Shown: positions 21,050 through 26,364 of the stretch, piece after piece | Layout: every line of letters begins with the position of its first letter | How positions within the stretch are numbered: position 1 is the first letter of the stretch | From: Tubulanus polymorphus | Taxonomy: Eukaryota > Nemertea > Palaeonemertea > Tubulaniformes > Tubulanidae | Direction: 5' to 3' | DNA length: 64,000 nucleotides | Assembly: GCF_964204645.1 (NCBI RefSeq) | Contig: NC_134030.1 | Span: 3,635,855 to 3,699,854 of the forward strand | Made by a program: the position numbers and the translations under genes | Notes under the pieces: model-generated | Seen by the model: only the letters and a program-made list of their open reading frames with translations | The model's database searches: none | What the model was told of the DNA's origin: nothing

Positions 21050-24000
21050 ATGCCAATCATGGCAACTCAGAATTCTGTGAATCACTCCTCATCATCTACT
21101 GCTGCCGTAGTAATGAATAATGACAGCAGAAAGTTGAAAAATGAGGTGGCTAATTCTAACAAGTAAGTATCGAGCATTTCGGCTTTAAATGCCTTATAAC
21201 CCTTATAAGGTCGATAAGATACACGATATCAGTGAATTCCCACAATCAGTTCAAAAAAATACAATAAGTTCTTATAGCAAATGAACATACATTCGAGCTA
21301 ATATTCGGCTTGATACTGATAGCGTTTAAAATAATCAAATATCAAAATGCTCTCAAGTATGAAAATAATTTCTAGTTCATTTTCGATAAAACTAATATCC
21401 TTTAATGTCATTACTTTGATTTCGTAGAAGACCACTTGAATTAGTAATTTCTGATGGTTTGTACTGATTGATTGTGTTGTGTATTGTTATTTGTAGGGAT
21501 GAAGGTTGGAAGTCACAGTTGAAGCTACCACCAAAAGATCATCGTGTTAAAACGACTGTAAGTATCTGGAAAATAGGCGTTACATGTTTTACGGGTCCTC
21601 GAGATATTTGAAACTGGTGAACCACCTGACTGTTGTCGAATACAAATGATGAATTCCTATCCAGTCAGTTCTGCTACTGAACTAATTGTGCTGATATTAA
21701 TGGATCTGATTATTTCGACAGGATATATTTTAAGTCAAATCACTCAATTATATTGTATTTCTGGTTTACCTATGACATGTTATCGACAGTTGGTTGACTG
21801 TCTGTCAAATACGAATGATGAATTTCTATCCAGTCAGTTCTGCTACTGAACTAATAGTGCTGATATTGATGGAATCTGATTTTCAACTGAAGATGCTTGA
21901 TGATTTGATATATGGGGCGCTGGCACTAGATGGGGCAATCAGTACATTCAGCTGCCTTGTTAGCTGTTTCAAAGATTATTTGTCATAAGTTCCTGGCTGC
22001 TTTCATAATTCATTTATTTTGTCGGTTTCAGGATGTAACTGATACTCAGGGCAACGAGTTCGAAGACTACTGTCTCAAACGTGATTTGCTCATGGGAATA
22101 TTCGAGAAAGGCTGGGAAAAACCGTCACCGATCCAGGAGGCTAGCATACCAATTGCTCTCTCCGGTCGCGACATCCTCGCCCGAGCCAAAAATGGCACCG
22201 GTAAAACCGGTGCTTACGCAATCCCGATACTAGAGCGTTGTGATCCTACGAAAAATTTTGTACAAGGTTCGTATTGTTTGGATTTTTTGTAAAATTCCGG
22301 ATGCAGTTAAAACCCAGTCATTCACTGAGAGTTAAATTAATGTGTTTTCAACCCAAATTTTAACCTCGAACTATAAACCTTCTGTCATAAATGAATTGTT
22401 AAATCATCAATTTTGGGTTTTTCTCACAAACTCTGAATACTGAGATCATCATCAGTTTACCAGAAACCCTTCAAACTTCAATGAATTATATTTCTAGTTG
22501 TATCAGTGGATTTTAGACGTGTTTAATGTTGTTATTGTAGCTCTGATAATTGTTCCGACTCGAGAGTTAGCGTTACAAACGAGTCAAATTTGTAAAGAGT
22601 TGAGTAAACATATTGAATGCGACGTTATGGTCACAACCGGAGGAACGAACCTCAAAGATGATATCATGAGACTCTACGAACCAGGTACGTGTATAATCAA
22701 TGTCCAATGTTCTCCATGCTGGAAGGGGCTGCATTTATTGTTAAGGGGGTCATTCATTTATTACGTACGCATTAGGGGAGGGGGAGGGGTCAGTGCAATT
22801 GCGTACTGTAATGCTTAATGTATACGAAAAAATGGCCGATTTTGCGTACAGAGGGGGAGGGGGGTTGAAAAATTCAAATTTTATGGGTTCGTAATTAATG
22901 AATGATCCCTAAGTGTATAACATCGTGGCTACTGAAGTAGCAAGGCTTTCAGTCTCCCAAAAAAATACAGAAACTTCACCTTAATTTTAGTGTAATCTTC
23001 TATTTCTGTTCTGTGGCAGCAAGGGGTGGCTGACTTTCTGAAACCTGTTGTGAAGAACACTGGTGTCGAATACGAATGATGAATTTCTATCCAGCCAGTT
23101 CTGCTACTGAACTAATTCTAATTGTGCTGTTATTTGTGGAATCTGATTATTTCGACAGGATTTATTTTAATCCAAATCACTCAATTATATTGTATTTCTG
23201 GTTTACCTATGTTATCGACAGTTGGTCGACTGTCTGTCATATATGCAAATGATGAATTTCTATCCAGTCAGTTCTGCTACTGAACTAATTGTGCTGATAT
23301 TGATGGAATCTGATTATTTTGATAGGATTTAATTTGATTCAGATTAAGCGGTTGTATCATATTATTTCTTATCACATTGTCTCTATAAATTTTTCCGTCG
23401 TGTATAGTTCATGTGATGATCGCCACTCCCGGACGAGTTCTCGATTTACTACGTAAAGGCATTGCACAGTGCGGTAAATGTACGATGATGGTTCTCGATG
23501 AAGCCGACAAACTCCTGTCGCAGGACTTCAAAAATATGCTCGACGATATCATCAGTTATTTGCCGAAAGAACGTCAGATTTTGCTCTATTCGGCTACATT
23601 TCCGTTGACTGTTGAGAAATTCATGGTAAGCGTTCATAAACCAATTTCAGTGCTATCGATATATTCTCGTGGGCATATTCTTGGGAATTTCAAAATATTA
23701 TTTCTCTGTTTAGATTTGAGTATTTAGAAAATAGATCAATTTTCATGTAATGCGGAAAGTACTTGGGGAAATCATTTTACGCTTCATGCTAGCATAGTTC
23801 TTGGATTTCAATTCCTTGCCTAATGAAAACTTTTTATAGCAATTTTCCTTGAAAATCACCTTCATCATGCAGTCACCAATAATATCCTATCATCCATGCA
23901 GTGCGATGGTATCCTTTCACGAAGGCCCCATTTCCATTTGGAAAAATTTGAAAATCACCCACGAAATACTTGGGAAAAACTGTCGTACTTTCGAATTTAT

Positions 24001-26364: not shown

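What the first reader, a model, noticed from the sequence alone, without database searches (positions are those of the whole stretch)
21634..25540. A structured repeat confined to four introns of DDX6
Seven cores in introns 2, 4, 5 and 7 share CCAGTCAGTTCTGCTACTGA and a TGTCGAA/TTCGACA inverted pair. Three introns carry the same dimer with an intervening GACAGT-TGGTTG-ACTGTC hairpin. I saw no copy elsewhere in the 64 kb. Each core also contains AGTTC-TGCTACT-GAACT, a small stem-loop. Spread between introns of one gene without copies outside suggests gene-internal conversion, or a conserved RNA element controlling splicing of an RNA-decay helicase.
Basis: seen in the sequence. Interest (0 to 1): 0.75.

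Follow-up and report, generated by a model that had tools for sequence, protein, structure and literature searches.

The report
U38 snoRNA copies in DDX6 introns
The repeated piece in the introns of this animal's DDX6 gene looks like seven copies of a long-known small guide RNA (U38/snR61) that marks ribosomal RNA for methylation, carried in introns as such RNAs usually are, though three introns unusually carry two copies each.

Summary
Seven cores lie in introns 2, 4, 5 and 7 of a DDX6 gene. Each is a box C/D snoRNA: C box ATGATGA, guide CAGTTCTGCTA, D' box CTGA, C' box about GTGCTGA, D box CTGA. The TGTCGAA/TTCGACA pair is the snoRNA's terminal stem; the shared 20-mer is its guide plus D' box. 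All seven hit Rfam snosnR61 (28-41 bits, under the gathering score of 45). The guide pairs with LSU rRNA AAGCAGAACTGG, with the U38/SNORD38/snR61 target A at the fifth base from D'. The 268-Mb genome holds one further clear copy, on another contig beside mir-92-like hairpins, at 46.8 bits (above cut-off). So this is neither a transposon nor, on present evidence, a DDX6-control element, but an expanded snoRNA family in a host gene for which I found no report. C/D snoRNAs multiplying between introns of one host is established. Unusual are two copies per intron in three introns, and a roughly 100-nt linker with a 6-bp hairpin, about as well conserved as the snoRNAs. The linker may aid processing, or the dimer may stay joined; neither is shown. 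No expression data were available.

The parts
21634..21720 (+). U38/snR61-like box C/D snoRNA, intron 2 copy a (C box 21646-21652, D box 21706-21709; terminal stem TGTCGAA/TTCGACA)
   Evidence: (40.4 bits RF00476)
21710..21814 (+). linker between the two snoRNAs of intron 2, with hairpin GACAGT-TGGTTG-ACTGTC at about 21785-21802
21803..21890 (+). snoRNA copy, intron 2 copy b (C 21815-21821, D 21876-21879); terminal stem degenerate
   Evidence: (39.6 bits)
23064..23157 (+). snoRNA copy, intron 4 copy a (C 23076-23082, D 23143-23146); one guide change (CCAGCCAGTT, which turns a G-U pair with the target into G-C) and a 6-nt insertion after D'
   Evidence: (28.0 bits)
23147..23248 (+). linker of intron 4 with hairpin GACAGT-TGGTCG-ACTGTC
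23235..23324 (+). snoRNA copy, intron 4 copy b (C 23249-23255, D 23310-23313); stem with a G-C to A-U double change (TGTCA/TGATA)
   Evidence: (39.9 bits)
24053..24142 (+). single snoRNA copy of intron 5 (C 24066-24072, D 24127-24130; stem CTGTCG/CGACAG)
   Evidence: (39.5 bits)
25296..25382 (+). snoRNA copy, intron 7 copy a (C 25308-25314, D 25368-25371)
   Evidence: (41.0 bits)
25372..25470 (+). linker of intron 7 with hairpin GACAGT-TGGTTG-ACTGTC at about 25438-25455
25456..25545 (+). snoRNA copy, intron 7 copy b (C 25471-25477, D 25531-25534); weak terminal stem
   Evidence: (36.6 bits)
21050..26364 (+). host gene DDX6, coding exons 21050-21162, 21497-21557, 22032-22266, 22541-22684, 23408-23625, 24353-24481, 24885-25065, 25647-25800, 26220-26364

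Best explanation
The seven cores are intronic box C/D snoRNA genes of the U38 (SNORD38, yeast snR61, Z1/Z11) family. They are transcribed as part of DDX6 pre-mRNA and released from the spliced introns (inferred). With the C/D snoRNP proteins, they guide 2'-O-methylation of the conserved adenosine in LSU rRNA GUAAGC-A-GAACUGG through the guide upstream of box D' (pairing shown on sequence, methylation inferred). The array arose by tandem duplication of a unit of snoRNA plus linker, followed by copying of the dimer between introns of the same gene. In the dimers, the conserved linker hairpin probably helps to separate the two snoRNAs or to protect their ends (inferred).
For: Box order and spacing are conserved in all 7 copies: C, guide, D', C', D; C to D is 64-71 nt. 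Rfam RF00476 matches all seven over the full model length, 28-41 bits; the only other hits in the whole window are weak miRNA-model matches to TA-rich stretches. The guide pairs with 12 consecutive bases (G-U allowed) of an LSU rRNA fragment found in the same genome, with A at the fifth position from D'; yeast, Neurospora, chicken and mammal snR61/U38 guide the corresponding Am (PMC2780460; PMC2653536). The genome has one more copy, at C12:3555102-3555174, that shares only the snoRNA features (C box, guide, C' box, D box, and a terminal stem of unrelated sequence, CGGTTTT/AAAACCG). It scores 46.8 bits, over the gathering score, and this diverged copy is an independent test of which parts matter. 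All seven are in the sense orientation, inside introns. Published work says C/D family members mostly sit in the same host gene, through cis-recombination (PMC8178906; PMC2653536).
Against: Each DDX6 copy alone stays below Rfam's gathering score (at most 41 against 45); the region between C' and D is shorter than in the family consensus. Two of the seven terminal stems (2b, 7b) are degenerate, so some copies may be non-productive. No RNA-seq, no methylation data and no related genome were available. The LSU fragment used is partial.
Confidence: 0.94

Rival explanations
1. The dimer stays joined as one stable RNA of about 250 nt with two C/D domains (as in tandem C/D scaRNAs such as SCARNA9, from my own knowledge), so that the linker hairpin is part of the mature RNA.
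For: The linkers are 92-95% identical at aligned positions in the three introns while the DNA immediately outside the dimer shows no detectable similarity; homology starts and stops near the ends of the dimer. The linker hairpin has a relative elsewhere in the genome with one double change that keeps the pairing.
Against: Intron 5 carries a single copy, and so does C12. Folding of the whole dimer is not exceptional (z -1.6), nor that of the linker (z -0.1). Recent copying of the dimer would give the same conservation.
Confidence: 0.12
2. Besides, or instead of, rRNA methylation, the copies regulate splicing of DDX6 by pairing with their own introns, as SNORD2 does in EIF4A2.
For: Precedent for snoRNA-host intron pairing (PMC10324135). 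The second copies lie 94-152 nt from the 3' splice site.
Against: The conserved parts are the C/D boxes and the rRNA guide; the same snoRNA exists outside DDX6 on C12. No alternative exon is known here, and pairing to splice sites was not tested.
Confidence: 0.1
3. The repeat is a transposon or SINE-like family that happened to land in DDX6.
For: Near-identical copies of one unit at several sites.
Against: Whole-genome searches with the dimer, the linker, the guide pattern and Rfam models find only the DDX6 copies, one diverged snoRNA on C12 and one 54-nt linker relic. All near-identical copies are in one gene and in one orientation. The DNA searches skip very common words, so the exact pattern counts carry most weight.
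Confidence: 0.02

Closest known systems
U38 / SNORD38A,B of vertebrates (host RPS8)
   Same: Guide directly before the D' box, same LSU adenosine, intronic, more than one copy in different introns of one host gene (chicken RPS8 introns 4 and 5, PMC2653536).
   Different: Host is DDX6 rather than RPS8, seven copies rather than two, two copies per intron in three introns; weak direct match to the SNORD38 model RF00212 (23-26 bits over the 3' two thirds).
snR61/Z1/Z11 (RF00476)
   Same: Best Rfam match for all copies, including CTGAAC after the guide in the DDX6 copies.
   Different: C'-D region about 12-13 nt shorter; score below the gathering value except for the C12 copy.
Intronic snoRNA gene clusters of rice and Drosophila
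   Same: Reported clusters of snoRNA genes within introns (PMC2780460).
   Different: Here the two are copies of the same snoRNA with a conserved hairpin linker; I did not compare sequences with those clusters.

Membership tests
Box C/D snoRNA | C box RUGAUGA and D box CUGA some 60-90 nt apart, with a terminal stem next to them | tested here: met
   All seven copies have ATGATGA and CTGA, 64-71 nt from C start to D end. Stem good in 2a, 4a, 5, 7a, moderate in 4b, degenerate in 2b and 7b.
Box C/D snoRNA | internal C' and D' boxes | tested here: met
   D' CTGA exact in all seven; C' GTGCTGA or GTGCTGT, one or two mismatches from RUGAUGA.
U38/snR61 family | guide upstream of D' complementary to LSU AAGCAGAACUGG with the A fifth from the box | tested here: met
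   12 consecutive pairs in each copy, A at position 5; LSU fragment from the same genome.
U38/snR61 family | score over the Rfam gathering cut-off | tested here: inconclusive
   DDX6 copies 28-41 bits against 45, so the cut-off is not met by them; the C12 copy of the same genome reaches 46.8.
U38/snR61 family | 2'-O-methylation at the target adenosine depends on it | not testable with these tools
   needs methylation mapping
Interspersed transposon family | many dispersed genomic copies | tested here: not met
   Only the DDX6 copies plus one diverged snoRNA and one linker relic.

The most novel reading that the evidence does not exclude
In this animal a U38 snoRNA family has expanded in DDX6, and in three introns it is made as a hairpin-linked dimer: either a way for an animal to release two snoRNAs from one intron through a dedicated linker hairpin, or a stable double C/D RNA.
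Probability: 0.2. Interest if true: 0.5.

Novelty: new member of a known kind. Interest (0 to 1): 0.3.

Why it matters
It removes a candidate 'new regulatory element' by giving it a precise identity. It also adds a DDX6-hosted, seven-copy U38 array, a natural test of how two snoRNAs in one animal intron are released. It shows too that Rfam's default thresholds can miss such diverged snoRNAs: the gathering scan of the window returned nothing.

Tried and rejected
The gathering-threshold Rfam scan found nothing in the window; only the permissive scan did. Transposon reading rejected by genome-wide counts. Thermodynamic folding of the dimer, and of the linker as a whole, is unremarkable; the short linker hairpin alone folds better than most shuffles. 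MAFFT alignment of the flanks did not put the stem arms in register, so stems were scored by script rather than by pair counting on that alignment. The region upstream of box D was not matched to a target. Two paper searches failed on a character rule. The literature searches turned up no paper whose title or abstract reports snoRNAs in DDX6 introns, but only open papers are held and I did not read through the list.

Full report
Check of the observation. The seven cores are real, all on the + strand, at 21661-25505, and unique in the window. Repeat analysis gives a 76-nt family of seven and a 35-nt hairpin family of three. A coding model with nine exons and GT-AG introns gives a 459-aa protein without stops; its best matches among solved structures are human DDX6 and its orthologues DHH1 and CGH-1. 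The cores are in introns 2, 4, 5 and 7.

What it is. Read as RNA, each core has ATGATGA (C), CAGTTCTGCTA followed by CTGA (guide and D'), GTGCTGA or GTGCTGT (C') and CTGA (D), and most are framed by complementary flanks. That is the anatomy of a box C/D snoRNA. Rfam at its default threshold gives no hit. A permissive scan puts all seven on snosnR61 (RF00476), end to end, at 28-41 bits against a gathering score of 45, with the match strongest over the C box, guide and D' box.

Target. The genome contains a large-subunit rRNA fragment with TTTTGGTAAGCAGAACTGGCG. The guide pairs with 12 consecutive bases of it and puts an A opposite the fifth guide base from D'. This is the site assigned to snR61 and U38 (Neurospora, PMC2780460; chicken, PMC2653536; the equivalence of the position rests on the shared guide and on my own knowledge of the U38 site). 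Methylation itself is inferred.

Genome-wide count. The pattern C box, gap, guide, D' start occurs eight times in 268 Mb, with none in the reversed control: seven in DDX6 and one at C12:3555137-3555168. The bare 14-mer adds one more place, on C4, without a C box in the right position; the control gives four such places. The C12 copy differs in almost everything but the snoRNA signals, has its own long terminal stem, and passes the Rfam cut-off at 46.8 bits. The identity is nonetheless ordinary.

How it spread. Dimers in introns 2, 4 and 7 are 89-92% identical over 251-262 nt, with no similarity found beyond. Intron 4 keeps the start of a second linker after copy b, so the original unit was probably snoRNA plus linker, duplicated in tandem and then copied between introns. 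Intron 5 shares only the 67-83 nt core. Published analyses find that box C/D families grow mainly by such recombination within one host gene (PMC8178906).

The linker. Linkers agree at 92-95% of aligned positions, close to the cores, whereas sequence just outside the dimers is unrelated. A 54-nt relative of the linker lies at C6:12973416-12973469 with no snoRNA recognised beside it. There the hairpin reads GGCTGT-TGGTTG-ACAGTC, in which one A-U pair has become U-A (read), although the minimum-energy fold of that stretch prefers another pairing. This is one change at one place: a hint, not proof, of a maintained hairpin. A role in separating the two snoRNAs, since exonucleases alone would not cut between them, is my inference.

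Function in DDX6. Nothing found links the copies to DDX6 splicing. A side role is possible in principle (PMC10324135) and is kept as a rival at low probability.

Limits. No relatives of this genome are held, so no cross-species covariation test was possible. No expression data were available.

Noticed in passing
L035:4904-4975 (-), i.e. G000:C12:3555103-3555174: The only other clear U38 copy of the genome lies about 60 nt upstream of the first of several mir-92-like hairpins on the same strand (L035 4767-4841, 4357-4435, 3973-4036, 3854-3914; below Rfam gathering scores). It could be a snoRNA-miRNA polycistron.
   Followed up: partly
L005:1501-1554 (G000:C6:12973416-12973469, - strand): A 54-nt relative of the snoRNA linker with its hairpin, without a recognised snoRNA next to it; origin unknown.
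   Followed up: partly
20454-20792: Long inverted repeats (38 nt at 92% and 53 nt at 83%) just upstream of the DDX6 coding part, like a small foldback element; a related arm lies at 26047-26079.
   Followed up: no
39437-39801: Tandem array of a 124-nt unit, 2.9 copies at 97%.
   Followed up: no
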